Shown here: positions 16,365-37,474 of the stretch, piece after piece | Layout of the letters: every line of letters begins with the position of its first letter | Position numbering within the stretch: the stretch's first letter is position 1 | From: Nocardia ninae NBRC 108245 | Lineage (GTDB): Bacteria; Actinomycetota; Actinomycetes; Mycobacteriales; Mycobacteriaceae | NCBI RefSeq assembly: GCF_007990755.1 | Contig: NZ_BJXA01000002.1 | Location: 186,001-250,000, forward strand | DNA: 64,000 bases | Direction of reading: 5' to 3' | Notes under the pieces: generated by a model | Told to the model about the DNA's origin: nothing | Database searches by the model: none | Seen by the model: only the letters and a program-made list of their open reading frames with translations | Made by a program: the position numbers and the translations under genes

Positions 16365-17285
16365 TCAGGCGGGAGCCGACCCCTCGCTCAGCCGAGCCAA
16401 GTCGGCGACCAGCCGCTCGGTCAGCGGCATCGCCACCGAGTGCTGCTCGGCGATGCGCAACAGCGCCCCACCGATCGCATCGAGCTCGAGCGGCCGTCCG
16501 GCCTCGGCATCGCGTTGCATCGACGACTTGGCTTCCGGCGGAAAGGCGTCGTAGAACCGCAGGGCCGCATCGACATCGGCGGGCACGCCGGCCGCGCGAC
16601 TGAGTGCGGCAATCTCCGCGACCAGGTCGACCAGCTCCGCGCGATGCACGGTCCGCATCTCGCCGACGGGACACTTGTGATGCGTGGTCATCAGGGCGAA
16701 CGGCGCGAGGAAGAACAGCTTTCCCCACAGCATGGCGGCTTCGTCGTCGCGTGTCGTCGCGCGCACACCAGCGCCGTCGAGCACCGCGACCAGCTCGTCG
16801 AGCCGCTCGGATGACGTGGTCGCACTCGCCAGATCGATCTCGACGAACGGGCTGCCGTGCTCGACGATCCCCTGCGCGACCCGCGTCGACGCCACCCGAA
16901 TCACGCCGGGCACCACCAATTCCGGGCGATACCGCCCGCGCAGCGCCGCCGGATGCTCGATCCCGTTGAGCAGCGGCACCACCAGGCCGTCGCCGAGCGC
17001 GGCGGGGGACACCCGGTCGAGGGCCGCGCCGAGGACGTTCTGTTTGACCGTCACCAGGCACACGTCGACCGGCTCACGTAACTCGGTGTCCGCCTCGGCC
17101 TGCACGGTGAAATCACCGAACATCCCACTGCGCACCTGCATTCCGTGCTCCCGTACGGCACGCACGGTCGCCTCGCCGCCGAGGAACGTCACCTGATGCC
17201 CGGCCCGGGCCAGCAACGCACCCACCAGCCCGCCGACTCCGCCCGGGCCCAGTACTGCCACACGCCACGGTCGCCCTGTATTCAT
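16365..17285 (-). CDS. Ketopantoate-reductase-like (ApbA/PanE) NADP oxidoreductase
   Basis: 306 residues. The N-terminal Rossmann motif VLGPGGVGGLVGALLARAG is followed by a C-terminal helical domain with the catalytic Lys in LWGKLFFLAPF and the KSSMQRDAEAGRPLELD substrate loop of ApbA/PanE reductases. Family members reduce 2-ketopantoate to pantoate or related 2-oxo acids with NADPH. Its start overlaps the stop of the upstream glutamate-synthase-like gene by four bases (ATGA), so the three minus-strand genes here form one coupled operon. A specialised reduction in the cluster pathway is more likely than housekeeping pantothenate synthesis, but this is inference. Confidence 0.85.
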   Translation of the reverse strand: MNTGRPWRVAVLGPGGVGGLVGALLARAGHQVTFLGGEATVRAVREHGMQVRSGMFGDFTVQAEADTELREPVDVCLVTVKQNVLGAALDRVSPAALGDGLVVPLLNGIEHPAALRGRYRPELVVPGVIRVASTRVAQGIVEHGSPFVEIDLASATTSSERLDELVAVLDGAGVRATTRDDEAAMLWGKLFFLAPFALMTTHHKCPVGEMRTVHRAELVDLVAEIAALSRAAGVPADVDAALRFYDAFPPEAKSSMQRDAEAGRPLELDAIGGALLRIAEQHSVAMPLTERLVADLARLSEGSAPA

Positions 17286-18553
17286 CGCGTCCTTTCATTG
17301 GTAGCGGGGAACCAGATGTCCTCGGCGGCCAGATCCGCGATCCGGTACTTGCCGAGCGCGCTGATCAGGAGTCGCAGCTCCAGCTCGAACGCGACCAACA
17401 GGTTCGTCAGTCCATGATCGGCATTCTCGTCGGCGGCCACCAGCGCCGCCCGGCCGAGTCCGACGGCGGAGGCGCCGAGGGCCAGGCACTTCACGACTCT
17501 GGTTCCCTCCCAGCACCTTCCGGACACCAGCAGGCTGTTGCCGTGCCGGTCGCGGTCGGCGACCCTGCGTAAGCATTCGGCCAAGGGCAGGCCGACGTGC
17601 TCGAGGAATCCGTGCGGCGCCCAGCCGGTGCCCGCCTCCGCGCCGTCGACGGTCACCGCATCGGCGCCCGCCGCCCAGGCGACCTCGGCCGCGTCGCCCA
17701 CATCCCGGGCCGGCGGCAGTTTCACCCAGATACGACAGCGCGGATAGTTGTTGCGCATCAACCGAATCTGCTGGCGCAGGATCTCCGGGGTGAAGGTGCC
17801 GGGGGTGGCTGAGCGCAGCATCGGTGCCGCCGCGCCGTCGTAGATATCGAGAATGTCGTACTGCGCCGACAAGTGTGCGGCCCGATCCGGCGGGAGCAGG
17901 GTCATGCCGCCGAGACCAGGTTTGGCCCCTTGGCCCACCTTCAATTCGAAGGCCAGGCGACCACTGGTCAGCAGCTGCTCGCTCGCCGGATCGCTGTACA
18001 CCAGATTCCACACCTCGGCGTCGGCGTCCTCGGTACTCTGCTGGACGATCACCCCGCCGGTGTCCTCGGCGGCCATCTTGGTGTATTCGGTGAGCCGACG
18101 CAGCAGCGAGCTCTGTTCCTCGTCCGCGACCCGCCCGTAGCCGGACACCGGCACGATGTTCTCGCCGATCACCATCGGCACGCCCGCGGCACCGGCTTGC
18201 CCGGCCACCGCGACACCGAGATCGCCGTCGGCCACGGCGGTGGACCCGAACGCCGAAACATACACCGGCAGAGTCGATCGCAGACCGCCGATGGTGGTGG
18301 TCAGATCGACGTCACCGGCCAGCGGCTCCCGGCCCAGATCGAACATCATCTCCGCGCGCAGCGGCACGAACACGGGCGGGACCAGCCGCGCGTGGTCGAT
18401 CGCGTCCATGGAGTCCGGTGCGGCTGCCGGTTGCCCCTGCCCGAACAGGGTCGAGCCGTACTGCGCGTTGTCGGGGAACACCGAACCCGCCGCCGTCCGC
18501 GCTCGCGCCCGCACCTCGCGCTCGGGGAATCCGGGAGCCGACAACACACTCAT
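17282..18553 (-). CDS. FMN-binding glutamate-synthase-family protein (stand-alone GltB core)
   Basis: 423 residues from ATG 18553. It corresponds to the FMN-binding synthase domain of glutamate synthase: ELKVGQGAKPGLGGM, IWVKLPPARDVGDAAEVAWAAG, VDGAEAGTGWAPHGFLEHVGLP and the glycine-rich ALGASAVGLGRAALVA barrel end are all visible. There is no glutaminase domain and no GXGXG domain, so it resembles MgsC-type or archaeal single-domain forms. These use external ammonia or glutamine-derived nitrogen to aminate 2-oxo acids. It is coupled by ATGA overlaps on both sides, to the AsnRS-like gene upstream and the PanE-like gene downstream. A reductive amination or imine reduction step in the cluster is plausible. 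Confidence 0.82.
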   Translation of the reverse strand: MSVLSAPGFPEREVRARARTAAGSVFPDNAQYGSTLFGQGQPAAAPDSMDAIDHARLVPPVFVPLRAEMMFDLGREPLAGDVDLTTTIGGLRSTLPVYVSAFGSTAVADGDLGVAVAGQAGAAGVPMVIGENIVPVSGYGRVADEEQSSLLRRLTEYTKMAAEDTGGVIVQQSTEDADAEVWNLVYSDPASEQLLTSGRLAFELKVGQGAKPGLGGMTLLPPDRAAHLSAQYDILDIYDGAAAPMLRSATPGTFTPEILRQQIRLMRNNYPRCRIWVKLPPARDVGDAAEVAWAAGADAVTVDGAEAGTGWAPHGFLEHVGLPLAECLRRVADRDRHGNSLLVSGRCWEGTRVVKCLALGASAVGLGRAALVAADENADHGLTNLLVAFELELRLLISALGKYRIADLAAEDIWFPATNERTR

Positions 18554-19551
18554 GGCCGGAGCTCCCCCGGAATCTTGGGGTAGGCGCTGGCCTGCCAGAC
18601 CGCGTCCAAGCCGCCGAGGAACCGGGTGAACCGTTCGACGCCGAGGCCGAAACCCGCACTGGGCGAAAGGCCGTCGCGGGCCAGGGTGAGGTACCACTCG
18701 TATTTGGCCGGATTCTCACCGGTTTCCCGCATGCGGGTCAGCAGGGTGCGGTAGTCCGATTCGCGGGCGCTGCCGCTCATCATCTCGCCGAAGCCGCCGG
18801 GGAAGATCAGGTCGAAGTTGCGCAGCGTGCCCGGCTCGTCGGGGTTCTCGCTGTCGTAGAAGCCGCGCGAACCCTTCGGGTAGTCGGTGATGAAGAACGG
18901 GCGGGTGGCGGCCGCGGAGATGATTTCCTCACCCTGCCAGTCGATCTCGGTGTGTTCGCGCTGGTCGTGCCCGAGGTCGCGCAGCTGCGCCACCGTCGCC
19001 GAGTGCCGCTGGCGGTCATAGGGCCCCGCGAGCACCTGCTTCAACTGTTCGAGATCGCGGTCCAGGACTTCCAGCTCGCGCTGGGCATTGGTCAGCACGT
19101 GCTCCACGGCGTATTTCGTCAGCCGCTCGGCCACGTCCATGGCGTCTTCGCGCGAGCCGTTCGCGATCTCGACATCGAGCTGATGGAACTCCGCGAGGTG
19201 CCGATGCGTCACCGCGGTCTCCAGCGGCTCGAGCCGCACGTTGGGCGCCACGTGGAAGATTTTGTCGAAGGCGAGCAGCGAGGCCTGCTTGTAGAGGATG
19301 CCGCTGGTCATCAGCTTGTAGCGGTGACCGTAGTAGTCGATGTCGACCTGTTTCGCGCCACGCGCCCCGGGGTCGGTCACCGGACCGATGATGGGCGGCA
19401 GCAGCTCGGTGAATCCCTCTGCGGTCAGAAATTCGCGCGCGGCGGACAGGAATCGGGCCTGCACCGTCAACGCCGCGACGGTTCGTTTCGACGTGAGATG
19501 CGCGCGCGGTAGTGGGGGCGCGGATACCGTCGGTTCAGTCACTTCAGGCAA
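18550..19551 (-). CDS. AsnRS-derived class II synthetase without anticodon domain
   Basis: 333 residues, clearly shorter than asparaginyl- or aspartyl-tRNA synthetase. It starts straight in the catalytic core with no OB-fold anticodon-binding domain. Class II motif 2 appears around THRHLAEFHQLDVEI, preceded by VRLEP, and motif 3 as GFGLGVERFTRFLGGL with its catalytic Arg. This is the architecture of the archaeal AsnRS-related asparagine synthetase (AS-AR), which amidates aspartate by an acyl-adenylate. In this cluster it could amidate or ligate 3-methylaspartate. The start is uncertain: TTG 19551 or GTG 19542, neither with a strong ribosome site. First gene of the minus-strand operon. Confidence 0.85.
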   Translation of the reverse strand: MPEVTEPTVSAPPLPRAHLTSKRTVAALTVQARFLSAAREFLTAEGFTELLPPIIGPVTDPGARGAKQVDIDYYGHRYKLMTSGILYKQASLLAFDKIFHVAPNVRLEPLETAVTHRHLAEFHQLDVEIANGSREDAMDVAERLTKYAVEHVLTNAQRELEVLDRDLEQLKQVLAGPYDRQRHSATVAQLRDLGHDQREHTEIDWQGEEIISAAATRPFFITDYPKGSRGFYDSENPDEPGTLRNFDLIFPGGFGEMMSGSARESDYRTLLTRMRETGENPAKYEWYLTLARDGLSPSAGFGLGVERFTRFLGGLDAVWQASAYPKIPGELRP

Positions 19552-19873: not shown

Positions 19874-19904
19874 ATTCCGGTTGTGAAGATCGTTTAGCAG
19901 CTCT

Positions 19905-20090: not shown

Positions 20091-21215
20091 GTGAATCCCG
20101 CTAAAATGAACTACGACCGTACGAACTTCGCTCCGCTGTCTCATTCCCGAGTCGAGCCCGGCGAGCTGAGGTTCCACTGGTGCGCGCCGCTGGACAGTGG
20201 TCAGCAGAAGGCCACCGAGAAGTATCGCGTCGGCGAACTCGACTTCGACGGAATGGTGGACTTCTGCCAGGAGGCCGACGCGCTCGGCGTTGACTCCTTG
20301 CTGATGGGCATCGCCGACTACATGCCCGACCCGCTGCCGATGATCGGCGCGCTGGTCCGGGAGACCGAGAACGTCACCTTCATCCTGGCCTACCGGCCCG
20401 GCCTGTTGTCGCCGACCTTGTTCACCCAGGTCGTCAACACGATCTCTTGGATGTCCGACGGGCGCATCGCGTTGAACTTGGTCGCAGGCATCTCGCCCGC
20501 GGAGCAGGCGGGCTACGGCGATTTCGTCGCCCACGACGGCCGGTACGCCCGCACCCAGGAATTCCTCGATATCTGCCACCGGTTCTGGGGCGGTGAGAAG
20601 CCGCTGTCCTACGAGGGCGACCACTACGTCATCAAAGAGGCCGCGCTCGGCCTGGGCTACCAGGGTGGCGGCCGGCCCGAGATCTACCTGAGCGGCGCGT
20701 CGGAGATCGCACAGGAGACCGCCGCGATGTACGGCGACTGCTGGCTGCGCTACGGCGATACGCCCGAGGGCATGGGCGCCGCGGCGCGACCGGTCCTCGA
20801 CAAGGGCACCCGCGTCGGCACCCGAATGCACGTGCTGGCCAGGGAAACTCGCGCGCAGGCGCTCGCCGATCTCGCCGCCATGCAGGAGAACCCCGACGAG
20901 AAGCATCGCGAATGGGTCGCGCAGGTGGTCGCCGCGTCCGACTCCGAAGCCGTGAAAACCTCGTTCCGCCTTGCCGAACAGGCCGCCGACGACTGGCTGT
21001 CGCCGATGATCTACTCCGGTTTCGTGCCGTACCGCGGCGGGCCCGCGCTGTGCGTGGTCGGCAGCTACCAGGAGGTGGCCGACTACCTCTATCAGTACAA
21101 GGCGGCCGGGATCAGCGAGTTCATCTTCTCCGGTTGGCCGACCCGCGACGAGATGCGCATCTTCTACACCCATGTCCTGCCCCTCATCCGTGAACGCGAG
21201 AGACGGCTGGGATGA
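20091..21215 (+). CDS. LLM-class flavin-dependent monooxygenase (SsuD-like)
   Basis: 374 residues of the bacterial luciferase-like fold. GELDFDGMVDFCQEADALGVDSLL, the FILAYRPGLLSPTLFTQ strand, ISWMSDGRIALNLVAG and YLSGASEIAQETAA are typical of the alkanesulfonate monooxygenase group, which uses FMNH2 and O2. In biosynthetic clusters such enzymes perform N-oxygenation, oxidative C-S cleavage or Baeyer-Villiger steps, and the substrate here is unknown. No flavin reductase is nearby. The start may be GTG 20091 or ATG 20106. It is the first gene of a seven-gene operon. Its stop overlaps the MFS gene start by four bases. Confidence 0.87.
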   Translation: MNPAKMNYDRTNFAPLSHSRVEPGELRFHWCAPLDSGQQKATEKYRVGELDFDGMVDFCQEADALGVDSLLMGIADYMPDPLPMIGALVRETENVTFILAYRPGLLSPTLFTQVVNTISWMSDGRIALNLVAGISPAEQAGYGDFVAHDGRYARTQEFLDICHRFWGGEKPLSYEGDHYVIKEAALGLGYQGGGRPEIYLSGASEIAQETAAMYGDCWLRYGDTPEGMGAAARPVLDKGTRVGTRMHVLARETRAQALADLAAMQENPDEKHREWVAQVVAASDSEAVKTSFRLAEQAADDWLSPMIYSGFVPYRGGPALCVVGSYQEVADYLYQYKAAGISEFIFSGWPTRDEMRIFYTHVLPLIRERERRLG

Positions 21216-22543
21216 AGCAGCGGGCGGTGGCTCGGCGCCGGGGGAAGGAAGTCAGCGAAGCCGACGGGGTGGATAAGCCCAGCGGGAAGGTGGTCGGCGG
21301 GACCGACGGGCTGAACAAGCTCAGCGTGCTGTTCGCCACCGGTGTTCTGCTCGGACTGGTCGCTGAACAAGTGGTGCTGTTCGCGGTGCCGCTGTTGATC
21401 TTTCACGACACCAAGCAGGTCTCCACCCTCGGCTTCGCGTTCGCGCTGGAGTGGCTGCCCGCCCTCATCGCCTACCCGTTCGCAGGCATGCTCGCCGACC
21501 GAGACGGCGGTGCCAGGCTGTTCACCCGCGTGGCGACGATGCGCGCGCTGATCCTGGTCGCCGTCGTGCTGGTCTGCCTCGTCCGGCCCGGCTGGCTGGT
21601 GCCCGCCCTGATGACCGGTGGCGCGTGCCTTTCGGTGTGTGTCGCGCCCATCCGGATGTCGATCGAGCGGATGGTGCCGCAGCTGGCCCGCGACTCCCAG
21701 ATCGCCACGGTGCAGTCCCTGGTGCAGAACATGGAGCTGCTCGCCATGGCGCTCGGGCCCGCGCTCGCGATCGTGGGCGCCGCCGTGCTCGGCAAGCTGC
21801 CGCTGCTGCTGGTCGCCGCGGCCGCGTTCGGCATCAGCGCGTTGACCTGGCTGCCGTTGCCGCGGCCGAAGGTGCGGGCCGCCGTCGGCTGGGTGGCCCG
21901 GGAAGTGTTGGCGGAGTTGGCCACCGGATGGCGACTCATGGTGCAGATCCGCCCGGTCCTGCTGCTCGGCATCCTCAACTTCACCATCAACCTGGTGGTC
22001 GGCGTGCTGATCGTCTCGAACGCAGCCCTGGTCACCGACGTTTTCAAAGCACCCGACTCGGCCTACGGTCTGCTGAACGCGGCCGTCGGGGTCACCGGGC
22101 TGCTGAACCTCTTGCTGATGCCCGCGCTGCTCCGTCGCGTCGGTGTCGGGCCCATCGGGGTGACGGGATTCTGGCTGATGTGCGCCGCGTTCCTGATAGC
22201 CGCTCTCGCACCGTCCTATTGGGTCTACGCCCCGGCCTTTGTCGCGATGCTCGTCGGCGACGCGCTCTACAACATCTACAACCGCACCCAGCGGGTGAAG
22301 GTGATCCCGATCGAGCATCTCGGCAAGGTCATGGGGCCGTTCTATCTGCTCAACCTGTTGTCCTATCCGATCGCGGGCCTGCTGATCGGTGGTCTGGGCG
22401 CCACCATCGGCCCGCAACGGCTCGCGCTGTGGCTGGGCATCATGCTCTGCCTGATCGGCGCGGTTCTCCTGCCGTTGACGATGGCCAGTTTCCGAAAAGC
22501 CTTGCTGGCCCGCGAGAACGCTAACGTTGAGGTCGTGACATGA
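21212..22543 (+). CDS. MFS transporter, probable product exporter
   Basis: 443 residues with about 12 hydrophobic segments after a 30-residue basic leader. The loop between helices 2 and 3 reads GMLADRDGGARL, a variant of the MFS motif A. The second half has its counterpart MLVGDALYNIYNRTQRVKVIP. It resembles actinobacterial efflux permeases of the macrolide/enterobactin exporter group. It is coupled by ATGA to the monooxygenase before it and to the B12-binding gene after it, so it very likely exports the product of this cluster or confers self-protection. Confidence 0.87.
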   Translation: MKQRAVARRRGKEVSEADGVDKPSGKVVGGTDGLNKLSVLFATGVLLGLVAEQVVLFAVPLLIFHDTKQVSTLGFAFALEWLPALIAYPFAGMLADRDGGARLFTRVATMRALILVAVVLVCLVRPGWLVPALMTGGACLSVCVAPIRMSIERMVPQLARDSQIATVQSLVQNMELLAMALGPALAIVGAAVLGKLPLLLVAAAAFGISALTWLPLPRPKVRAAVGWVAREVLAELATGWRLMVQIRPVLLLGILNFTINLVVGVLIVSNAALVTDVFKAPDSAYGLLNAAVGVTGLLNLLLMPALLRRVGVGPIGVTGFWLMCAAFLIAALAPSYWVYAPAFVAMLVGDALYNIYNRTQRVKVIPIEHLGKVMGPFYLLNLLSYPIAGLLIGGLGATIGPQRLALWLGIMLCLIGAVLLPLTMASFRKALLARENANVEVVT

Positions 22544-23028
22544 ACGTTCGTTTCCGGTGCGTGCTGAGCACCGTGGAGTCCGATTCCCATCTCTGGAATC
22601 TGGTGTACCTGCAGAAGCTGCTCGAGGAGAACGGCGCCTCGGTGCACAACCTCGGGCCGTGTACGCCGGTCGAGAGCGTGGCCGACGCCATCCGCGCGGA
22701 CCGGCCCGACCTGCTGGTCGTGTCCAGCGTCAACGGCCACGGTTTCCACGGCGCGCAGGTGCTGCTGTCCGGTCTGCGCGAGCGCGGACTCGAGGTGCCG
22801 TGCGCCATCGGCGGCAAACTGACCACCGCGGTCTCCGACGACGACCGGGTCCGCCGCGAACTGCTCGACCTGGGCTACACCGACGTGTTCCTCGGCGACG
22901 ACGCCATCGCGCGCTTCCGCGGTTTCCTGCGTTTCGGTCTCGCCCAAGGGTTTTCGGCCTGGCGCGCGGACCCCGCGCTGATCACGCCGTGGGACAGCGC
23001 GAACTCCGTGACCCGAAAGGTGTCCTGA
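22540..23028 (+). CDS. Cobalamin-binding small subunit of glutamate mutase
   Basis: 162 residues forming one B12-binding Rossmann-like domain. The ligand motif appears as ESDSHLWN with axial His17. The usual DxHxxG is DxHxxN here. It is followed by VVSSVNGHG and AIGGKLTT, the positions of the SxL and GG elements. It resembles GlmS/MutS of coenzyme-B12 glutamate mutase, which together with the large subunit (25752-26999) converts glutamate to 3-methylaspartate. ATGA overlap with the MFS gene, and its TGA overlaps the ATG of the ATP-grasp gene. The Gly-to-Asn change next to the cobalamin tail is notable, and its effect is unknown. Confidence 0.87.
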   Translation: MNVRFRCVLSTVESDSHLWNLVYLQKLLEENGASVHNLGPCTPVESVADAIRADRPDLLVVSSVNGHGFHGAQVLLSGLRERGLEVPCAIGGKLTTAVSDDDRVRRELLDLGYTDVFLGDDAIARFRGFLRFGLAQGFSAWRADPALITPWDSANSVTRKVS

Positions 23029-24266
23029 TGCATATCGTCATCGTCAATCGGTGGCCACGTTTCTTCGACGGGACCCGCTGGGACAACGAGCTCACCCGCT
23101 ACGAGGAGTTCATCGACCACGACGCCAACCAGGTGAGCTACGTGGTGGACGGTCCAGGGGCCGAGGGCGTGCTCGCCGACCCGGCGAAGATCGCCTGCCA
23201 GGTGCGCGTCGAGGACGTCAACGACGTGGCGGCCCTCGGCGCGGCGGTACTGGAGATCACCGAGCGGGTCGGGCCGGTGGACGAGCTGATCGCCCTGTCG
23301 GAGTTCACCCTGGAGATCGCGGCCAAGGTCCGCGAGGACCTCGGCATTCCCGGACCGACCCGCACGGAGGTCGCCGTCTACCGCGACAAGGTTCGGATGA
23401 AGCAGGTGTTGGACGAGTCGGGAATTCGGGTGCCGCGCTTCGATTCCTGTGTGAGCGCCGAGCAGGTGCGCGCGTTCGCGGCGTCCTGCGGCTATCCGCT
23501 GATCCTCAAGCCGGTCGCGGCGGCCGCCAGCATCGGGGTGCGCCGGGTGGACAACGCCGCGGAGCTGGACGCCGCACTGGCGACTCTCGATCTCGGCGAC
23601 TACGAGATCGAGGAATTCATCGCGGGGCAGATCTACCACGTGGACGGTTTCGTCGACGACGACTCCCGCATCACGTTCCAGGCGACCTCTCGCTACATCA
23701 ACGACTGTCTGTCCTTCACGCACGGCGCGCCACTCGGCTCGGTGTTGATGAGCCCGTCGCCACGGCGGACGCTGATCGAGGAGTTCTCGCAGCAGATCGT
23801 CACCGCTCTCGGCTTGCGCCGCTTGCCCTTCCACCTCGAGGTGTTCATCACCCCGGCCGGCGATCCGGTATTCCTCGAAATCGGCGGCCGAGTGGGTGGT
23901 GCCGAGGTCCCGCACCTGATCTACCGGGTCTTCGGCGTCAACCTGTACGAGATGTTCCTGCGGGTGCTGTCCGGCGGGCCGGTCCCGCCGGTGCCGGACC
24001 TCATCGACTCCTCCGGCGGTTGGCTGATCATGCCCAAGTCCGCCGAGCAGGCCGAACGGGTGCTGCGGGTCGCCTCCATGCGCGACCAGGTGCCGATCGT
24101 CTGGCGCGAGCTGCTGCCCGAACCCGGGCAGGTGCTGGCGCCCGGCGGCGCGTACGACGCGCTGCATCGCGGGCGCTTCATTCTGCTGCACGAGGATGAG
24201 CACGTCGTCGAGGCCGGCATCCGAAAGATCATCGAGAACTTCGACTTCGAGGCGGAATCGCTGTGA
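23028..24266 (+). CDS. ATP-grasp carboxylate-amine ligase 1
   Basis: 412 residues. The N-terminal Rossmann-like part has IALSEFTLEIAAKVREDLGIPGPT, followed by the ATP-grasp fold: DKVRMKQVLDESGIRVP, YPLILKPVAAAASIGV (nucleotide Lys), EEFIAGQIYHVDGFV, and the metal-binding FHLEVFITPAGDPVFLEIGGRVGG. It belongs with L-amino-acid ligases and biotin-carboxylase-like enzymes that join a carboxylate, via an acylphosphate, to an amine. A second ATP-grasp enzyme closes the operon. With no peptide synthetase in sight, these two are the best candidates for assembling the backbone. TGATG overlap with the gene before it, ATGA-type overlap after it. Confidence 0.9.
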   Translation: MHIVIVNRWPRFFDGTRWDNELTRYEEFIDHDANQVSYVVDGPGAEGVLADPAKIACQVRVEDVNDVAALGAAVLEITERVGPVDELIALSEFTLEIAAKVREDLGIPGPTRTEVAVYRDKVRMKQVLDESGIRVPRFDSCVSAEQVRAFAASCGYPLILKPVAAAASIGVRRVDNAAELDAALATLDLGDYEIEEFIAGQIYHVDGFVDDDSRITFQATSRYINDCLSFTHGAPLGSVLMSPSPRRTLIEEFSQQIVTALGLRRLPFHLEVFITPAGDPVFLEIGGRVGGAEVPHLIYRVFGVNLYEMFLRVLSGGPVPPVPDLIDSSGGWLIMPKSAEQAERVLRVASMRDQVPIVWRELLPEPGQVLAPGGAYDALHRGRFILLHEDEHVVEAGIRKIIENFDFEAESL

Positions 24267-26999: not shown

Positions 27000-27019
27000 C
27001 TACCCCGAGGGGATCTTCG

Positions 27020-28292: not shown

Positions 28293-30407
28293 TCAGGTGA
28301 TTACGTGCGGGCCGCCGAGTGGGGACGGGAGTGGTGTCTCGCCGGTGTGGGGGCCGGTGAGGAGTTGTTTGATGATCTTGCCGGTTTCGCCGCGGGGGAG
28401 GGAGGCGAGGAAGGTGACGTCGCGGGGGACGGAGAAGCGGCTGAGGCGGTGGCGGATGTAGGACCGGATCATGTCCGAATCCAGGCCCGAGTCTTCGCGT
28501 TTCACGACGAAGGCGGCGAGGCGCTGGCCGAATTCCTGGTCGGGGACGCCGACCACGGCGACCTCGCTGACCTGGGGGAGGTGGGCGAGGGCCTCCTCGA
28601 CGGGGCGGGGGAAGACGTTCTCGCCGCCGGAGATGATCATCTCGTCGTCGCGGCCCGCGATGAACAGTCGCCCGGCGACGTCGAGATAGCCGAGGTCGCC
28701 GGTGTCCAGCATGCCGTCGGACTCGGCCGGCGGCGCCGAACTCACGTAACCGTCGAACAGCATGTGATTGCCGACGTAGATGTTTCCGGTGACGCCGATC
28801 GGGACCGGGCGCCGATCGGGGCCGAGCACCGCGACTCTGGTGCCCAGCGGCGGCTTGCCCGCGGTGGTCGGCGCGGTCCGCAGGTCGTCGGGCGTGGCGA
28901 TGGTGGCCCAGGAGACTTCGGTGGAACCGTAGACGTTGTACAGGATTTCGCCGTAGACATCCATGAAGCGCAGCACCGTCGCACCGGCCAGCGGGGCACC
29001 GCAGCTGACGACCGCGCGCAGGCTCGACGTGTCGTAGCGGGCCCGCACGGCGGGCGGCAGATCGAGGATGCGGTTCACCATCGTCGGCACGACGATCATG
29101 CTGGCGACGCGATGTTCGGCGACGAGCCGCAGACATTCCTCGGCGTCGAATCGCTCCGGCAGCACCACCGTCGCGCGCAGTGGCGTACTGATCTGGAGTC
29201 CGGCCAGCCCCCAGGTGTGGAAGAGCGGCGCGGGGATGAGCATCGGCTGTTCCATGGGCAGCGGAATCCGCGACAGCAGCGCGGCGATGGTGCCGAAGCC
29301 CTTGGGTTCGGGGCGGCGCGCGCCCTTCGGCGTGCCGCTGGTGCCGGAGGTCAGCACGATCAACCGGCCCGGCCGGGTCGGGCGATGAAAATCCCATTCG
29401 CCCTGCGCGATCAGATCCTCGATGGTGGTCCGGTGCGGCACCGGCGGGTGGCCGTCGATGTTGAAGCGCGGCAGGTCGGTGTGCAGGTAGCAGACCAGCT
29501 GCTCGAGGTCGCCGTCGACGAACAGCGCGGCGATCCGGTGCCGCTGGACGATGTCCTCGATCTGCCGGCCGGACAGCCCGACATTCAACAGCGCCACGTC
29601 GACGCCGAGTTTGCCTGCGGCGACCATGCATTCGACCATGCCGGCATGGTTGCGCGAGAGCAGCCCGACCGTGTCGCCGAAGCCGAGGTCGAGCCGAGCC
29701 ATTGCACCGGCGAGTGCGCTTGTCCGAGCGTGCATCTCGGCGAAGGTGCGGGTGCCCGATCCGTCGATCAGGGCGATCCGATCCGGATCGTAGGCCGCGG
29801 CCGCCGCGTAGCCACCGGCCAGGTTGAAGCCCCATTTCGCCAGGGAGCGAGCCTGTTTCACGCCGATCGCGAGGTTCGTGGTGCGCCCGACGCCGACTGT
29901 GACCATCTGTTTGGCCACGCTCACCTGCCTGCGCAGTGGGGCATTCTCGGCATTGATCACCGTCGAGGTCCGTGCGCCACGGATGACATCGACCGCCCGC
30001 CGCAGCCCGTTTTTCACCCACGCCACCACGGCCGCGTTGGACTGCTCGGCGATGTGTGGATGCCACCGGCCCGGCGCGAACACGGTGACGACGACCTTGG
30101 TGCGCTCTTGGTCACCCTGCAGCTTCACCGACACGAAACTGCCGGTCCCCGGGCACTGCAACTCGAAACTCTCGTACCAGCGCCACACGGTCAGCCGCAG
30201 CTCATGCGTGCGGATGCCGGACTCGGCGGTGCCGATGCGCACCTGCGCGATCCGGCTGTCCGGTCCGGTCTCCACCAGCTCGCAGGCGCCGATGCCCGCG
30301 AACAACCGGGGGTAGGTCTGCGGTTCGAGCAGCAGATCCCACAGCGCTTTACGGGCGACCGCGAAGTCGGCGCTCACATCGATGACGTCGGTTACCAACT
30401 CACGCAC
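28293..30407 (-). CDS. Acyl-CoA synthetase with N-terminal SRPBCC domain (fusion)
   Basis: About 704 residues from GTG 30407; longer in-frame starts up to 30605 give an unconserved leader. Residues 1-140 form an SRPBCC/polyketide-cyclase-like domain (VTDVIDVSADFAVARKALWDLLLEPQ...). The remainder is a FadD12/FadD2-like adenylating enzyme with the P-loop LTSGTSGTPKGARRPE, the NVYGSTEVSW motif, DTGDLGYLD and the C-terminal lysine in GETGKIIK. It should activate a carboxylic acid as adenylate and CoA thioester. The N-terminal START-like cavity may present the acyl substrate. It follows the decarboxylase with a 281-base gap, so cluster membership is less certain than for its neighbours. Confidence 0.82.
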   Translation of the reverse strand: MRELVTDVIDVSADFAVARKALWDLLLEPQTYPRLFAGIGACELVETGPDSRIAQVRIGTAESGIRTHELRLTVWRWYESFELQCPGTGSFVSVKLQGDQERTKVVVTVFAPGRWHPHIAEQSNAAVVAWVKNGLRRAVDVIRGARTSTVINAENAPLRRQVSVAKQMVTVGVGRTTNLAIGVKQARSLAKWGFNLAGGYAAAAAYDPDRIALIDGSGTRTFAEMHARTSALAGAMARLDLGFGDTVGLLSRNHAGMVECMVAAGKLGVDVALLNVGLSGRQIEDIVQRHRIAALFVDGDLEQLVCYLHTDLPRFNIDGHPPVPHRTTIEDLIAQGEWDFHRPTRPGRLIVLTSGTSGTPKGARRPEPKGFGTIAALLSRIPLPMEQPMLIPAPLFHTWGLAGLQISTPLRATVVLPERFDAEECLRLVAEHRVASMIVVPTMVNRILDLPPAVRARYDTSSLRAVVSCGAPLAGATVLRFMDVYGEILYNVYGSTEVSWATIATPDDLRTAPTTAGKPPLGTRVAVLGPDRRPVPIGVTGNIYVGNHMLFDGYVSSAPPAESDGMLDTGDLGYLDVAGRLFIAGRDDEMIISGGENVFPRPVEEALAHLPQVSEVAVVGVPDQEFGQRLAAFVVKREDSGLDSDMIRSYIRHRLSRFSVPRDVTFLASLPRGETGKIIKQLLTGPHTGETPLPSPLGGPHVIT

Positions 30408-30688: not shown

Positions 30689-32086
30689 TCACGCCGCGGC
30701 GACCTTGACGATCACCTCCAACAGGTCGTTCAACGTCTGCCGATCGGTCGTCGGCGACATGAGCGCGGCGCGCAAATAGGGTCGGCCACCCAGCGCGAAA
30801 GACGAGAGATAGAACCGGCCGTCCTGGATCAGCCGGGACCGCAACTCGAGCTGCCGGTCGCCCCACGGCTCATATCGGAAGCAGAGGATATTGCTCTGCG
30901 GCTGGTACGGCGCGGTGAAATCGGGTCGTTCTTGAATGAGCTCCCACAAGTCGGTGGCGAGGCCGTATTGCCGCTCGACATAAGAGCGCAAGGAAGCTTC
31001 ACCGCGATAGGCGAGCGTCAGCAAGATCTTGAGACCGAGTGGCGCCTTGGAGGTTTCGAAGGTGTACTGCCCGGGGTCCACGTCTTCGGCCTCGGGCCGG
31101 TAGAGATAACTCGCGTCTTGCTTGAACATGGTGTCGAGATAACGCTTTTCGCGGAACAGCACCCCGGTGCACAGCGCCGAGGTACGCAGCATCTTGTGCC
31201 CGTCCCACACCGTGGAGTCCGCGCGCTCGATGCCGGCCAGTAGGCCGCGATGGCGCGGCGAGATCAGCGCGGCGGCGCCGTGTGCGCCGTCGACGTGGAA
31301 CCACAGGCCGTTGGCCGCGCAGAACTGCGCGACATCGGCGATCGGGTCGTACAGGCCCGTCCCGGTGGCGCAGCCGTTGGCCACCACGGCGACCGGACGC
31401 TTACCCTGCGCGCGCACCTCGGCGAGCGCGGGCTCGAGCTCCGCCGGATCGATGCGGCCCAGCGCGTCGGTGCGCAGCGGATAGACGCCGCGTTCGCCCA
31501 GCCCCATGACGGCGGCTGCCTTGCGCACGGAGTAGTGACTGGTCGCCGGGGCGAGAATGACGAGGTCGCCCGGGTTTCCGTCTCGCCACGCGGTGGCGTC
31601 GGCATGCGAACGGGCGGCGAGCAGAGCAGTCAGATTGCCCAGCGTGCCGCCGTTGGTGATCGCCCCGAGCCCGGTCGCGCCCCAGCCGACGTTGTCCAGC
31701 ATCCACCGGCACACCGCCCGGTCCACCGCCGCGGCGGCGGGGGCGAGCTCGTACACCAGGGGAATATTGTTGGTCATCGCCTGGAGGAGATCGGCGACCA
31801 CACCGGGGGTATCCGACGGCGCGATCTGATGCGCCATGTACCCGGGGTGATGATGGCTGGCCGAGATGTCGCTGTAGGTGGTGACGAACGACAGCAACTC
31901 GGGCAGCGTCATCCCCCCTTCTTCGATCCACCGGCGCAGCTCCAGCCGCTTGGCGACCGTATCGATATCGGCCGAGGAAACGACCTCGCCCGCTCCGGTC
32001 CTGGCCGTTTCGATATGGGCGGCAAGGGTTTCGAGGACCGCCGTCCCGACTTCTCGCACATCGTCGACCAAATCGACATGAGACAT
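30689..32086 (-). CDS. PLP-dependent group II amino acid decarboxylase
   Basis: 465 residues of the group II decarboxylase family: ASHHHPGYMAHQIAP, ITNGGTLGNLTALLAAR, the PLP-binding HVDGAHG, and the Schiff-base Lys in VWDGHKML. Relatives decarboxylate glutamate, aspartate, 2,4-diaminobutyrate, tyrosine or histidine. With a glutamate mutase in the same cluster, 3-methylaspartate is an attractive substrate. Alpha-decarboxylation would give 3-aminoisobutyrate, the logic known from vicenistatin starter-unit synthesis. The ATG lies behind AGAGGATC, the same ribosome site as the glutamine-synthetase-like gene. It lies 61 bases downstream of the AsnB gene in one minus-strand operon. Confidence 0.88.
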   Translation of the reverse strand: MSHVDLVDDVREVGTAVLETLAAHIETARTGAGEVVSSADIDTVAKRLELRRWIEEGGMTLPELLSFVTTYSDISASHHHPGYMAHQIAPSDTPGVVADLLQAMTNNIPLVYELAPAAAAVDRAVCRWMLDNVGWGATGLGAITNGGTLGNLTALLAARSHADATAWRDGNPGDLVILAPATSHYSVRKAAAVMGLGERGVYPLRTDALGRIDPAELEPALAEVRAQGKRPVAVVANGCATGTGLYDPIADVAQFCAANGLWFHVDGAHGAAALISPRHRGLLAGIERADSTVWDGHKMLRTSALCTGVLFREKRYLDTMFKQDASYLYRPEAEDVDPGQYTFETSKAPLGLKILLTLAYRGEASLRSYVERQYGLATDLWELIQERPDFTAPYQPQSNILCFRYEPWGDRQLELRSRLIQDGRFYLSSFALGGRPYLRAALMSPTTDRQTLNDLLEVIVKVAAA

Positions 32087-34145: not shown

Positions 34146-34188
34146 GGGTCTATCTCCTATTTCCTCGAGACTTACGGAGCATCGCCGA

Positions 34189-35493
34189 CTACACCGAATC
34201 CAGATACCGGGCGCGCTCCCAATCGGTGACTTCTCGCTGCCCCGCCGCCGCCTCGCTGCGCGCCACTCGGCACAGGTTCTGCACCGTCGACGCGCCGAGT
34301 GCGCGCCGGGCGAACTCGCTCTCGCCGAACAGGTTCGCGGCCGCCCAGATGTTCGTCGGCAGGGGAGGATACTCCTGCGAGACATAGGAATTCGCGGCAG
34401 GCGGTGGTGGTTTCAGGTCTTCGGTGACGCCGGCCAAGCCCGCGGTGAGCTGGGCGGCGGCCAGCAGGTAAGGGTTGGCATCGGCGGCGGCGATGCGCGT
34501 CTCCACCCGGGTGCCACCGGCGTCGCGGACCAGGACGCGCACCGCGGCGCACCTGTTGTCCAAACCCCAGGAAAGGTTCGTCGGCGCGAACGAATGGTCG
34601 GCGACGCGTTTGTAGCCATTGGGCGTGGGGACGGACACGAGCTGTAGCTCGGCGGCGTACTTCAGGAGCCCGGCCACATAATTGTGACCGATGCTGCTCA
34701 GCGTGCCCGCGTCCCAGAACGCATTGTCTTTCTCCTTGCGCCACATGCTCTGATGGATGTGCAGGCCGCTGCCGGAGAGGTCACCGAACGGCTTCGCCAT
34801 GAAGGTCGCCCGGAATCCGTGCCGGGGTGCCAGTTGCTTCACGGCATAGCGAAAGAAGAGCAGTCCGTCCGCCGCGGTGAGCGGGTCGGACGGGGTGAGG
34901 TTGATCTCGACCTGACCCGGCGCGTACTCGGCCCCGCACGCCTCGACCTCGACATCGGCGCTGAGCAGCGTCTGGCAGACATCGTCGAGAAACGGCTCCA
35001 GGTAATGATTGTCGTGCAAACTGTAGACCGGATTGCGGTCGCCCCTGGGGCGCAGCGTCTCCGCGTCGAGTGCGTAGAACTCGCTCTCCATTGCGATGTA
35101 GGGCGAGAGACCGGCCTGCACCAACTCGGCTGCCGCACGGCGAAGTACGTCGCGCGGCGCTACTGTGGCGAGCTTGCCGGACCCGTCGACGACGTCACAG
35201 AAGACCAGGGCGGTCCGCTGCTTCCATGGCACGAGTCGCAGCGTTGCCACATCGGGGCGCAGGAAGATATCGGGATAACCATTGGACCAGCTGTATTCAT
35301 CGGTCTCGATGACCTCCATCTGGTAATCCCAGGCCAATACCGCCGAGGACAAACCGACCCCACCCGAAAGCCCACTCGACAAAAACGTTTCGACCGGGAT
35401 TCTCTTCCCGCGGATAGCGCCTGTCATATCCGGCGTGGCGAGCTCGACCATCGTGATCGAATGCTCTTTCAGAAATTGCTCTACCGCTTCCAT
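34189..35493 (-). CDS. Glutamine-synthetase-fold ligase (gamma-glutamyl-amide type)
   Basis: 434 residues from ATG 35493, with AGAGGATC upstream; in-frame extension to 35613 is unconserved. Active-site strands of the glutamine synthetase fold are present: MESEFYALD, CGAEYAPGQVEINLTPS, SGLHIHQSMW, DNRCAAVRVLV and RVETRIAAADANPYLLAAA. It is shorter than housekeeping GlnA and lacks the adenylylation-loop tyrosine pattern. It resembles GlnA3/PuuA/GMAS-like enzymes that couple glutamate to amines other than ammonia. In the cluster it could ligate glutamate or 3-methylaspartate to an amine made by the decarboxylase. It heads the AsnB-decarboxylase operon, possibly after a small gene at 35553-35864. 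Confidence 0.87.
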   Translation of the reverse strand: MEAVEQFLKEHSITMVELATPDMTGAIRGKRIPVETFLSSGLSGGVGLSSAVLAWDYQMEVIETDEYSWSNGYPDIFLRPDVATLRLVPWKQRTALVFCDVVDGSGKLATVAPRDVLRRAAAELVQAGLSPYIAMESEFYALDAETLRPRGDRNPVYSLHDNHYLEPFLDDVCQTLLSADVEVEACGAEYAPGQVEINLTPSDPLTAADGLLFFRYAVKQLAPRHGFRATFMAKPFGDLSGSGLHIHQSMWRKEKDNAFWDAGTLSSIGHNYVAGLLKYAAELQLVSVPTPNGYKRVADHSFAPTNLSWGLDNRCAAVRVLVRDAGGTRVETRIAAADANPYLLAAAQLTAGLAGVTEDLKPPPPAANSYVSQEYPPLPTNIWAAANLFGESEFARRALGASTVQNLCRVARSEAAAGQREVTDWERARYLDSV

Positions 35494-35505
35494 ATCGATC
35501 CTCTC

Positions 35506-35533: not shown

Positions 35534-35552
35534 ACTTCACAAACGTGTGGAC

Positions 35553-35864
35553 TCAGGTGACCTCGGTGATCGGATCTGCCGGGGACCCCGGCACCTCCCC
35601 GGGGGACACGCAAAGCACGCGGCGAGCAGCACCCCGTCGCACTGGCTGACCCGGAACCAGCTTAGCGCGCAACGTATCCCGACGACAGCGCTTCCACATC
35701 TCGCGCGACTCCCGCGGGTGCGCGACCCGTTCCAGCGTCAGGTTTCGACCGGCATCGTCGCGCATCGGCTCAGTCTGGCAGAGCCACTCGAGATCCGGCA
35801 TGCCCCGGATGGGGGGTTGAAATCCGGACGGCAACCCCTGATCTTGGAGAAAACGAGATAGCAT
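35553..35864 (-). CDS. Small hypothetical protein ahead of the GS-like gene
   Basis: 103 residues from ATG 35864, supported by an excellent GAGGGAG ribosome site six bases upstream; GTG 35885 is an alternative. The sequence has hydrophobic/aromatic segments (LEWLCQTEP, REMWKRCRR) and is rich in Arg and Pro toward the C-terminus. No family is recognised. Third-codon G+C is somewhat lower than in neighbours. It lies 59 bases upstream of the GS-like gene on the same strand and covers the region where the P450 promoter should be. It could be a small accessory protein, a leader or a spurious frame. Confidence 0.4.
   Translation of the reverse strand: MLSRFLQDQGLPSGFQPPIRGMPDLEWLCQTEPMRDDAGRNLTLERVAHPRESREMWKRCRRDTLRAKLVPGQPVRRGAARRVLCVSPGEVPGSPADPITEVT
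35803..35818. promoter_or_regulatory. CCCC-GGAT-GGGGGGTT element in right divergent region
   Basis: CCCC GGAT GGGG forms a short dyad, and the GGGGGGT half-site is identical to that of the dyad at 19856-19873. In both places it is followed by a CCGG a few bases on. It lies about 100 bases upstream of the P450 start. It also falls inside the small minus-strand frame 35553-35864, so it may be coincidental. Confidence 0.35.
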
Positions 35865-35918
35865 CCAGATCTCCCTCAAAGTCACCCATTTCGTGTGGGA
35901 ATATGGGAAGCGAAAACC

Positions 35919-37388
35919 GTGACCGAAGTTTCAACCCGTGTCGGCACCGTCGCCGACCCGATGCGCGCGCCCGGGCCCACCGGCTTGGACGCGTTCCGGG
36001 CAATGGCGCAAATCCGCAACGATCCCTGCCTGGCCTTCCAGAGCCTCGTCGAGCAGTACGGCGATGTCGTCCGAATAGACATCTCGGGCGGGCAATTCTT
36101 TATCGTCAACGATCCCGAGCTCGTCGAAACAGTCTTCGTCGGACGTCAGAGCAACTACGTCAAAACCCTCAATGCCAAAGTGGCGGCAATGGCATTGGGC
36201 AATGGGCTGCTGACCAATGAGGGTGACTCCTGGACCCGCCAGCGCCGGATCATGCAACCGCTGTTCGCCCGTCGTCAGCTGGATCGTTTCGCCGAGTACA
36301 TGATCACCGCGGCGGAGCGTTCGTTGCAGCGCTGGGAAACCCGTCCCGATGGGGATCAGCTCGACGTCTCCGTGGCCATGAACGCCTTGACGCTCGACGT
36401 GACCGCACCCGCGCTCTTCGGCAGCGACCTGTCCGAGGACGCCGCGCACGTGCACGAGGCGCTCGTCGAAATCCTGCGCTGTGTCGGCAAAGCCATGACC
36501 TCGTTGCTCACCTGGTTGCCCGCCCGGCTGCCGGGCGTGACGCCCGATATGGCGCTGCGGTTGCAGGCCCCGCGCTGGCGCAAGCTGGACGCGGCGGTCG
36601 CTGTGCTCGACAACGTCGTCGCCCGGCTCATCCGGGAACGACAGGCGAACCCGCAGGACGACCGGCACGATCTGCTCGGTCTGCTGCTCGACGCGCGCGA
36701 CGAGAAGGGTGCGGCGGCGATGAGCCCGCGCCAGGTCCGCGACGAGCTGGTGACCTTCTTGCTGGTCGGGCACGACACCACGGCCTACTCGCTGGCCTGG
36801 ACCTTGATGCTGCTGTCCAACAATCCCGAGGCGCGCGAACGGCTCATCGCCGAGGTCGACACCGTGCTCGGCGACCGCCGCCCCACCCCGGCCGACCTCG
36901 ACCAGTTGCCGTGGACCTCGGCCGTCATCGAAGAGGCGATGCGCCTGTATCCGCCGTCCTGGCTGATCGAACGGCAAGCCGCCGCCGACGATGTGCTCGG
37001 CGGCTACGCCATCCCCGCCGGGGCGACCGTGTACGTGGCGTCCTACCTGCTGCACCACGACCCGAAATCCTGGCCCAACCCGGAAGGTTTCGACCCGCGC
37101 CGGTTCCTGCCGGAGAACAAGCAGTTCGTCTATCCCGCCACCGGTACCGGGAGCCCGCAACCCCGTTCCCGCTATGCGTATCTGCCCTTCGGTGCGGGCC
37201 ACCGCCAATGCATCGGACTGGGTTTCGCGCGCATTCAAGCCAAACTCATCCTCGCCATGCTCACCCAGAGCTACACCTTCGACCTCGCAGCAGGGGCGCG
37301 GATCGTCCCCGAGCACACGCTGACCTTGCGGCCGCGCGACGGACTTCCCATGGTTTTGCGGCGTAGAACCCGCACAGAGACGGTGTAG
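35919..37388 (+). CDS. Cytochrome P450 monooxygenase
   Basis: 489 residues from GTG 35919, which has GGGAAG eight bases upstream; GTG 35895 is longer by eight residues. It shows the I-helix LLVGHDTTAYSLAW, the K-helix EEAMRLYPP, and the heme loop FGAGHRQCIGLGFA with Cys431. The 490-residue length and sequence resemble CYP102-head or fatty-acid-type P450s more than small macrolide hydroxylases. It hydroxylates an unknown substrate, presumably a cluster intermediate. It is divergent from the GS-like operon and monocistronic, ended by a 16-bp hairpin. No ferredoxin is adjacent. Confidence 0.92.
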   Translation: MTEVSTRVGTVADPMRAPGPTGLDAFRAMAQIRNDPCLAFQSLVEQYGDVVRIDISGGQFFIVNDPELVETVFVGRQSNYVKTLNAKVAAMALGNGLLTNEGDSWTRQRRIMQPLFARRQLDRFAEYMITAAERSLQRWETRPDGDQLDVSVAMNALTLDVTAPALFGSDLSEDAAHVHEALVEILRCVGKAMTSLLTWLPARLPGVTPDMALRLQAPRWRKLDAAVAVLDNVVARLIRERQANPQDDRHDLLGLLLDARDEKGAAAMSPRQVRDELVTFLLVGHDTTAYSLAWTLMLLSNNPEARERLIAEVDTVLGDRRPTPADLDQLPWTSAVIEEAMRLYPPSWLIERQAAADDVLGGYAIPAGATVYVASYLLHHDPKSWPNPEGFDPRRFLPENKQFVYPATGTGSPQPRSRYAYLPFGAGHRQCIGLGFARIQAKLILAMLTQSYTFDLAAGARIVPEHTLTLRPRDGLPMVLRRRTRTETV

Positions 37389-37437
37389 GCCGATCATCGC
37401 GCTTGCCCCCTCGCTGGCGCGTCGACGGTGCGAACCG

Positions 37438-37474
37438 GTAGTGCGCTACCTCAGCTATTGAGGTAGCGCACTAC
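37438..37474 (+). terminator. Strong hairpin terminator after the P450
   Basis: GTAGTGCGCTACCTCA (37438-37453) is perfectly complementary to TGAGGTAGCGCACTAC (37459-37474) with a five-base loop. It starts 50 bases after the P450 stop and marks the right border of the cluster. No T-run follows. Confidence 0.85.

What the first reader, a model, noticed from the sequence alone, without database searches (positions are those of the whole stretch)
16365..37474. Ligase-rich biosynthetic cluster without NRPS or PKS
Seen: about 21 kb between hairpin terminators at 16321 and 37438. It holds six different ATP-dependent amide/C-N-forming enzymes (AsnRS-like, two ATP-grasp, PP-loop, AsnB, GS-like), a B12 glutamate mutase, a PLP decarboxylase, FMN glutamate-synthase-like and PanE-like enzymes, a flavin monooxygenase, a P450 and an MFS exporter. 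The seven-gene plus-strand operon and the three-gene minus-strand operon are joined almost throughout by ATGA or TGATG overlaps or 1-20 base gaps. No carrier protein or condensation domain is present. Inference: a small peptide-like or amide-rich metabolite assembled by free-standing ligases. I know no characterised cluster with this set.
Basis: partly seen in the sequence, partly recalled or inferred. Interest (0 to 1): 0.88.

Follow-up and report, generated by a model that had tools for sequence, protein, structure and literature searches.

The report
Carrier-free ligase cluster for modified peptide
A Nocardia genome carries a ten-gene set, shared with Streptomyces and (in part) Pseudomonas, that probably rebuilds glutamate into an unusual amino acid, alters its amide (perhaps to a sulfur-containing thioamide) and joins it into a small peptide without the usual assembly-line enzymes; the other half of the reported cluster is a separate neighbour.

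Summary
The genes are present as described, but the 21-kb "cluster" is two units. (1) A ten-gene core, 16365-28261: PanE-like, GltB-like, AsnA (minus); LLM, MFS, GlmS, ATP-grasp, PP-loop, GlmE, ATP-grasp (plus). It recurs in Nocardia, Streptomyces, Streptacidiphilus, Cellulomonas and Micromonospora, and without GltB/PanE in Pseudomonas and Burkholderiales. Of 77 PP-loop loci, AsnA and GlmS occur in all 41 with GlmE and in none of the 36 without it. (2) A separate block, PLP-AsnB-GS-P450 (30689-37388): in four sister genomes it lies 1.6-4.0 kb from the window's left-flank genes, without the core.

The PP-loop protein has no Pfam family or solved relative. It is nearest TtcA among five PP-loop families tested and keeps TtcA's CxxC plus a third invariant Cys, the motif of Fe-S sulfur-inserting enzymes such as the thioamide synthetase CtaC. 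Best reading: glutamate to 3-methylaspartate (mutase), to its amide (AsnA), amide altered by the PP-loop enzyme (thioamide favoured, nitrile the main rival), then ligation by two ATP-grasps. The chemistry is inferred. No characterised match turned up in ten open-licence paper searches.

The parts
16320..16346 (.). hairpin (10-bp perfect stem) at the left edge of the core; coincides with the left end of the segment missing from sister PLP loci
   Evidence: sequence; alignments end at 16308-16320
16365..17285 (-). PanE/ApbA-like ketoacid (or imine) reductase
   Evidence: PF02558/PF08546; TIGR00745 191 v cut-off 141, equivalog models below cut-off
17282..18553 (-). stand-alone FMN protein with the GltB synthase / FMN_dh domain
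   Evidence: PF01645, PF01070; nearest solved: glutamate synthase large chain, E 7e-10; start at ATG 18553 chosen from overlap
18550..19551 (-). AsnA: archaeal-type asparagine synthetase (class II aaRS-like catalytic core)
   Evidence: PF00152; NF005052 431 v cut-off 368; relatives 1x54 (AsnRS, best) and 3p8t (archaeal AsnA). TTG start uncertain
20091..21215 (+). FMNH2-dependent luciferase-like monooxygenase (SsuD/SfnG/MsuD-like)
   Evidence: PF00296; PDB 7jv3 E 6e-41; below the curated cut-offs of SsuD and SfnG
21212..22543 (+). MFS exporter
   Evidence: PF07690
22540..23028 (+). GlmS: cobalamin-binding subunit of a glutamate-mutase-type enzyme, DxHxWN motif
   Evidence: PF02310; glutamate mutase sigma subunit E 5e-5, methionine synthase slightly better at 3e-5; motif in 40 of 40 sequences printed
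23028..24266 (+). ATP-grasp ligase 1 (L-amino-acid-ligase-like)
   Evidence: PF13535; 4wd3 L-amino acid ligase E 4e-20
24263..25750 (+). PPl: TtcA-type PP-loop protein without a Pfam family; GGGKDS, C165-x2-C168, C303
   Evidence: no family; 45-row alignment; hhalign v TtcA
25752..26999 (+). GlmE: catalytic subunit of a glutamate (methylaspartate) mutase-type enzyme
   Evidence: PF06368 E 5e-79; TIGR01503 156 v cut-off 390, not met; alignment to solved glutamate mutase
26996..28261 (+). ATP-grasp ligase 2 (PRK07206 / L-amino-acid-ligase-like)
   Evidence: NF005543 348 v cut-off 302; 30vh L-amino acid ligase E 7e-62
28293..30407 (-). AMP-binding (acyl-CoA-ligase-like) protein; NOT part of the conserved core
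   Evidence: PF00501/PF13193; at 33% identity or more in 1 of 41 core loci, L017; start uncertain
30689..32086 (-). PLP decarboxylase of the separate neighbouring block
   Evidence: PF00282; block order in L124-L128
32148..34145 (-). AsnB-type asparagine synthetase of the neighbouring block
   Evidence: PF00733/PF13537; TIGR01536 396 v 267
34189..35493 (-). glutamine-synthetase-like ligase of the neighbouring block
   Evidence: PF00120; below the curated cut-offs of GGputSyn and GlnA
35895..37388 (+). cytochrome P450 of the neighbouring block
   Evidence: PF00067; syntenic in L124-L128
37438..37474 (.). hairpin (16-bp stem) after the P450
   Evidence: sequence

Best explanation
The core (16365-28261) is a self-contained, apparently mobile cluster for a small exported peptide made without carrier proteins. 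Proposed order: (1) GlmS/GlmE isomerise L-glutamate to 3-methylaspartate; (2) AsnA amidates its side-chain carboxylate; (3) the PP-loop enzyme PPl adenylates that amide carbonyl and, with a three-Cys Fe-S cluster like TtcA/TtuA/CtaC, swaps O for S to give a thioamide (or, less likely, a nitrile or amidine); (4) the GltB-like and PanE-like enzymes adjust the oxidation state of the amino- or keto-acid part in actinobacteria (a PanB hydroxymethyltransferase gene occurs in 10 of 11 Pseudomonas versions); (5) the two L-amino-acid-ligase-like ATP-grasps join it to one or two other amino acids; (6) the FMNH2-dependent SsuD-like monooxygenase oxidises the product, perhaps at sulfur; (7) the MFS protein exports it. 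Shown by sequence: gene families, operon structure, linkage of AsnA-GlmS-PPl-GlmE, conservation of the core without the right half, PPl's nearest tested family and its three invariant cysteines. Inferred: substrates, order, thioamide outcome and peptide nature. The right half (30689-37388) is a separate block; the core lies inside its locus here.
For: Linkage: grouping 77 PPl loci by GlmE, AsnA and GlmS are in 41 of 41 with it and 0 of 36 without (flanks up to 10 kb). Gene order LLM-MFS-GlmS-ATPg1-PPl-GlmE-ATPg2 is kept from Nocardia to Pseudomonas. PPl against PP-loop families in six 10-sequence draws each: TtcA prob 66-80, ArgG 11-18, TilS 9-18, QueC 2-5; CysH 10, only 4 sequences. Against pooled TtcA+TilS (49 sequences) prob 90, with C165/C168 aligned to TtcA's CxxC; ten column-shuffled controls at most 1.3; non-PP-loop profiles 0.2-0.4, AsnB 0.6. 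C165, C168, C303 invariant in 45 of 45 rows: window, L008 and 43 of the 77 loci. Precedent: CtaC, a PP-loop enzyme with the TtcA/TtuA cluster motif, is a thioamide synthetase; changing D77 or S78 abolished and C154, C157 or C284 lowered its activity, an order like D60, S61, C165, C168, C303 here (PMC6772006). In L086 and L092 (2 of 77) a Cys/Met PLP enzyme directly follows PPl, echoing YcfA/YcfC of 6-thioguanine (PMC6225789, passages). 7 of 9 listed solved relatives of LLM are organosulfur monooxygenases. Window and L042 (Pseudomonas) AsnA each pass a different curated asparagine synthetase A model. GlmE aligns to glutamate mutase keeping R100, R149, E171, Y177, Y181, K326 and E330 (roles recalled). 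Right half separate.
Against: No sulfur-mobilising gene in the core itself. The TtcA match is moderate (prob 78) and covers residues 48-138 only unless TilS is pooled; the TtcA set came from other phyla than the other sets; TilS scored 32.5, 18.5 and 9.4 in other set-ups. The third Cys could not be aligned; PPl's Cys spacings (105, 135) differ from CtaC's (77, 127). The Cys set could bind zinc. CtaC acted only on carrier-bound substrate and no carrier is present here. Nine non-core PPl loci carry a nitrilase-family gene, which would fit a nitrile better. GlmE misses the curated equivalog cut-off and has Tyr at His291; GlmS has DxHxWN rather than DxHxxG; so the mutase substrate may differ. Roles of GltB-like, PanE-like and PanB are unassigned. 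Of 36 non-core PPl loci 12 show no amide-forming partner in the flank, and 9 have only a protein called glutaminase-like by eye (no Pfam hit). L048's AsnA is just under its cut-off (303.6 v 309).
Confidence: 0.45

Rival explanations
1. Same pathway, but PPl dehydrates the side-chain amide made by AsnA to a nitrile, giving a peptide with a cyano amino acid.
For: PP-loop-type enzymes (QueC/ToyM; ArtA, argininosuccinate-synthetase-like; PesC, asparagine-synthetase-like) make nitriles through activated amides (PMC13060819: abstract, introduction, passages and part 1 of 3 of the references). PPl is paired with AsnA in 41 of 41 core loci and with an AsnB homologue in 15 of the other 36. A nitrilase-family gene lies near PPl in 9 of those 36, possibly self-protection.
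Against: PPl is closer to TtcA than to ArgG (ArtA's class) or QueC at equal depth. As far as I recall, a TtcA-type three-Cys set is not needed for that chemistry. No nitrilase hit in the 41 core loci.
Confidence: 0.25
2. PPl exchanges the amide oxygen for nitrogen (amidine) or makes a ring (lactam or cyclic amidine), giving an amidine-bearing peptide.
For: Amidation and cyclisation are ordinary PP-loop chemistry (recalled: GuaA, NadE, beta-lactam synthetase); amide-forming partners near many PPl genes.
Against: TtcA-type Cys set.
Confidence: 0.15
3. One reading: one 21-kb cluster in which core and the PLP-AsnB-GS-P450 block act in one pathway.
For: PPl, PLP and GS occur in the same 6 of 59 genus genomes; adjacent in the window and in L017 and about 9 kb apart, in another order, in N. 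colli.
Against: In G008, G021, G040, G047 and G058 they lie about 1 Mb apart or on different contigs. Of 27 genomes searched, 7 (all Nocardia) have the PLP gene at 88% or more; the other 20, with three Nocardia core carriers (L023, L024, L047) and the Streptomyces and Pseudomonas carriers among them, have hits of at most 35% or none. The co-occurring genomes may be one clade, which was not tested.
Confidence: 0.12
4. Primary metabolism: the methylaspartate route of glutamate breakdown, or an asparagine or pantothenate pathway.
For: Family names (mutase, AsnA, PanE) come from such pathways.
Against: Patchy: PPl in 6 of 59 genus genomes and 2 of 396 phylum genomes, one of them the window's own. 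Ligases, an exporter and PPl do not belong to those routes as I know them.
Confidence: 0.03

Closest known systems
Closthioamide cluster (CtaC thioamide synthetase with ATP-grasp CtaD), PMC6772006
   Same: Peptide made outside classical NRPS with a TtcA/TtuA-motif PP-loop enzyme plus an ATP-grasp; same order of PP-loop Asp-Ser and three Cys
   Different: CtaC acts on carrier-bound substrate and the cluster has carrier proteins; no mutase, AsnA or LLM is named in the two of three parts I read. Spacings differ (77 and 127 v 105 and 135) and CtaC itself was not compared by sequence
TtcA / TtuA Fe-S tRNA thiolases
   Same: PP-loop, aligned CxxC, a third invariant Cys; TtcA has the best profile score of five families tested
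   Different: PPl is 495 aa with a long C-terminal half, lies in biosynthetic operons, and matches no curated family
YcfA/YcfC of 6-thioguanine (PMC6225789, passages)
   Same: PP-loop enzyme with a PLP C-S-type enzyme, as in L086 and L092
   Different: Nucleobase substrate; no such PLP gene in the window's core
L-amino-acid ligase (bacilysin/dapdiamide-type) dipeptide clusters
   Same: Free-standing ATP-grasp ligases and exporter, no NRPS
   Different: Curated BacD and DdaF cut-offs not met; those clusters, as recalled, lack a mutase-AsnA-PP-loop cassette
Glutamate-mutase clusters: beta-amino-acid macrolactams, MeAsp lipopeptides, nikkomycin
   Same: GlmS/GlmE for a 3-methylaspartate-derived unit (search listing; details recalled)
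   Different: PKS/NRPS-based as recalled; papers not opened, so absence of PPl or AsnA there is not shown

Membership tests
TtcA/TtuA-type Fe-S sulfur-inserting PP-loop (AANH) enzymes | PP-loop SGGxDS-type motif | tested here: met
   GGGKDS invariant in 45 rows
TtcA/TtuA-type Fe-S sulfur-inserting PP-loop (AANH) enzymes | CxxC plus a third Cys | tested here: met
   C165, C168, C303 in 45 of 45; CxxC aligned to TtcA; third Cys not alignable
TtcA/TtuA-type Fe-S sulfur-inserting PP-loop (AANH) enzymes | profile-level homology | tested here: inconclusive
   best of five families, prob 66-80; no curated family match
TtcA/TtuA-type Fe-S sulfur-inserting PP-loop (AANH) enzymes | bound Fe-S cluster and sulfur insertion | not testable with these tools
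   needs biochemistry
CtaC-type thioamide synthetase | carrier-protein-bound substrate | tested here: not met
   no carrier domain found among the core proteins
Glutamate (methylaspartate) mutase | both subunits and conserved substrate-site residues of GlmE | tested here: met
   His291 replaced by Tyr; residue roles recalled
Glutamate (methylaspartate) mutase | curated equivalog cut-off for the E subunit | tested here: not met
   TIGR01503 156 v 390; so a relative, not filed as the catabolic enzyme
Glutamate (methylaspartate) mutase | DxHxxG cobalamin motif of GlmS | tested here: not met
   DxHxWN in 40 of 40 sequences printed: D and H kept, G replaced by N
Archaeal-type asparagine synthetase (AsnA) | curated family cut-off | tested here: met
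   window NF005052 431 v 368; L042 NF005054 313.8 v 309, L046 309.1, L048 303.6
Alkanesulfonate monooxygenase (SsuD) | curated cut-off | tested here: not met
   TIGR03565 166 v 518; SsuD-like at most
NRPS/PKS cluster | carrier, condensation or ketosynthase domains | tested here: not met
   none in Pfam scans
L-amino-acid ligases | ATP-grasp fold with ligase activity | tested here: inconclusive
   nearest solved relatives are L-amino acid ligases; BacD and DdaF curated cut-offs not met; activity not tested

The most novel reading that the evidence does not exclude
PPl founds a family of carrier-free Fe-S thioamide synthetases that act on a free amino-acid amide (here 3-methylasparagine); the 77 loci found, mostly actinobacteria and pseudomonads but also a myxobacterium, Tengunoibacter and Desulfoluna, would then be a largely unseen class of thioamide (or S-oxidised) small peptides, many assembled by stand-alone ligases.
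Probability: 0.33. Interest if true: 0.82.

Novelty: new variant of a known kind. Interest (0 to 1): 0.62.

Why it matters
It defines a portable four-gene cassette (AsnA-GlmS-PPl-GlmE) that recurs across actinobacteria and proteobacteria with an uncharacterised PP-loop family as its signature. If PPl makes a thioamide or nitrile on a free amino acid, that would extend a reaction known (in what I read) on carrier-bound, nucleotide or peptide substrates, give a search handle for clusters that NRPS/PKS-based mining is likely to miss, and name one enzyme to assay. It also warns that two clusters side by side in one genome can look like one.

Tried and rejected
Nitropeptin, suggested by the S. xanthochromogenes locus L091 (recalled lead): one paper in the listing, not opened; dropped. 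Paper searches: held no paper; one search listed macrolactam, lipopeptide and nikkomycin work; searches listed no title or abstract start that names this gene set. PMC2922099 was read in passages only: PP-loop asparagine synthetases near MetRS-like genes, no mutase. All ten searches cover open-licence PMC only. Viral contigs: no PPl; plasmids: PPl in 1 record; phages: no near DNA match; Rfam: none in 12000-42000. The CysH set had 2 sequences and 4: too thin. PanB/PanE as a self-resistance copy of the pantothenate pathway was considered; L042's PanB passes the curated PanB model, so this is not excluded. The 33% identity floor leaves out AsnB homologues of about 30% seen. groups loci by GlmE, so its absence from the 36 is by definition.


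Full report
What is in the window. The finding's genes are real and mostly correctly named. The minus operon is AsnA, GltB-like, PanE-like (19551 to 16365); the plus operon is LLM, MFS, GlmS, ATP-grasp 1, PPl, GlmE, ATP-grasp 2 (20091 to 28261). GlmS (22540-23028) was hidden in my first gene calling under an overlapping frame. Both hairpins exist.

Two units, not one. The window's genome is closest to Nocardia suismassiliense among the named genomes found (L017, PPl 99%). PPl occurs in 6 of 59 genus genomes, the window's own included. In the other five the ten core genes lie together, away from PLP-AsnB-GS-P450 (the fetched stretches L009 and L013 end inside AsnA and after LLM, and L019 and L022, which lie on contigs of the same lengths, show the rest). 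In four of the five (L124-L127) the TetR-ADH-15673 genes that lie left of the core in the window sit near a second P450 and PLP-AsnB-GS-P450; L128 showed the block without those left-hand genes in the 18 kb fetched. blastn aligns window 13857-16308 and 30688-37363 to L124-L127 and nothing between 16321 and 30687. So the core plus the AMP-ligase occupies a place inside that locus; the direction and age of the move are not shown. In N. colli the blocks are about 9 kb apart in another order. A PLP orthologue of at least 88% is in 7 of 27 genomes searched, all Nocardia; the other 20 have hits of at most 35% or none; L031 was not held.

The core is a conserved unit. A scan of named genomes with a five-row PPl alignment gave 77 loci. 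With GlmE also present: 41. In those 41: AsnA 41, GlmS 41, LLM 32, ATPg1 32, MFS 31, ATPg2 31, GltB 25, PanE 17, and PLP, AsnB, GS and AMP-ligase 1 each (identity floor 33%; flanks up to 10 kb, some contigs cut). In the 36 without GlmE: AsnA, GlmS and GltB 0; PanE 2; LLM and MFS 1. Distances of eight core genes over 30 loci correlate at 0.73-0.98, as expected of a set inherited together, though shared descent alone also gives this. Of 11 Pseudomonas core loci, 10 carry PanB (the eleventh, L039, is cut short), as does L048; 12 of 41 carry a GntR/aminotransferase regulator; 9 of 41, all actinobacterial, a flavin reductase. The smallest versions, AsnA-GlmS-PPl-GlmE, are in Methylobacter, Salinisphaera and Pseudogulbenkiania, two of them on contigs under 8 kb. 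A complete Methylobacter plasmid has these four, an EamA exporter and a regulator in a row, with panB 5 kb on.

PPl. It has no Pfam or NCBIfam family and no significant solved relative. Against profiles built here it scores best with TtcA. With TtcA and TilS pooled, the alignment runs from the PP-loop through CxxC to the GDSxxEQ motif, which pairs with GHHxDD. Three cysteine columns are invariant in 45 of 45 rows; the next cysteine column has 26 of 45. CtaC of closthioamide has the TtcA/TtuA cluster motif and lost activity without its Fe-S cluster, in air, or with D77 or S78 changed; changes at C154, C157 or C284 lowered activity although iron was still bound (PMC6772006, parts 1 and 2 of 3 read). 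PPl has D60, S61, C165, C168, C303 in the same order; the two sequences were not compared. TtuA's cluster is held by three cysteines (PMC6225789, passages).

Why an amide. The window and L042 AsnA proteins pass two different curated asparagine synthetase A models. The mutase product, by family, is 3-methylaspartate, although GlmE misses the curated equivalog cut-off. Among the 36 other PPl loci, 15 have an AsnB homologue of 28-35%, 9 a protein I take by eye for a glutaminase-type amidotransferase (no Pfam hit), and 12 neither. So PPl usually, not always, sits with an amide-forming step. Thioamide and nitrile are both open: ATP-dependent nitrile synthetases are known (PMC13060819: abstract, introduction, passages and part 1 of 3 of the references).

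Ligation and export. ATP-grasp 2 is closest to an L-amino acid ligase (7e-62), ATP-grasp 1 to another (4e-20). LLM is closest to alkanesulfonate, dimethylsulfone and methanesulfonate monooxygenases (7 of 9 listed) but misses their curated cut-offs. These fit a small, possibly sulfur-bearing, exported peptide; none is proof.

Prior knowledge. In ten searches of the open-licence library I saw no characterised cluster with this set; most hits were seen as listings only. Subscription papers and characterised-cluster databases were not searched, so a published match cannot be excluded.

Noticed in passing
window 11238-12983 (+): A 581-aa protein with the protein-arginine deiminase domain PF03068 (E 1e-105), which I recall as uncommon in bacteria.
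   Followed up: no
L051, L053, L055, L074: PPl beside lysine/ornithine N-monooxygenase-like genes and a MetRS-like protein (one of each confirmed by Pfam): possible N-N or hydroxylamine chemistry sharing the PP-loop enzyme. L065 has the MetRS-like gene alone.
   Followed up: partly
L059, L061, L067, L072, L083: PPl in another recurrent set with an HMGL-like aldolase (Pfam for L083 only), an AMP-ligase family and an AsnB homologue, found also in Desulfoluna and Pseudoalteromonas.
   Followed up: partly
L054, L056, L075, L077, L080, L081, L089, L090, L093: PPl near a CN_hydrolase (nitrilase-family) gene, each with an ATP-grasp hit of 26-30%; a WelO5-like oxygenase family is in three of them and in related loci such as L057, the one scanned.
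   Followed up: partly
L243 (Methylobacter sp. YRD-M1 plasmid NZ_CP091425.1): Minimal AsnA-GlmS-PPl-GlmE-EamA set on a 349-kb plasmid, near a transposase and a group II intron gene: a possible route for spread.
   Followed up: partly
L058 (Streptomyces lincolnensis L4): PPl with LLM, MFS and both ATP-grasps but no mutase or AsnA hit, beside a protein that looks by eye like an NRPS adenylation domain: the ligase half can pair with another building block.
   Followed up: no
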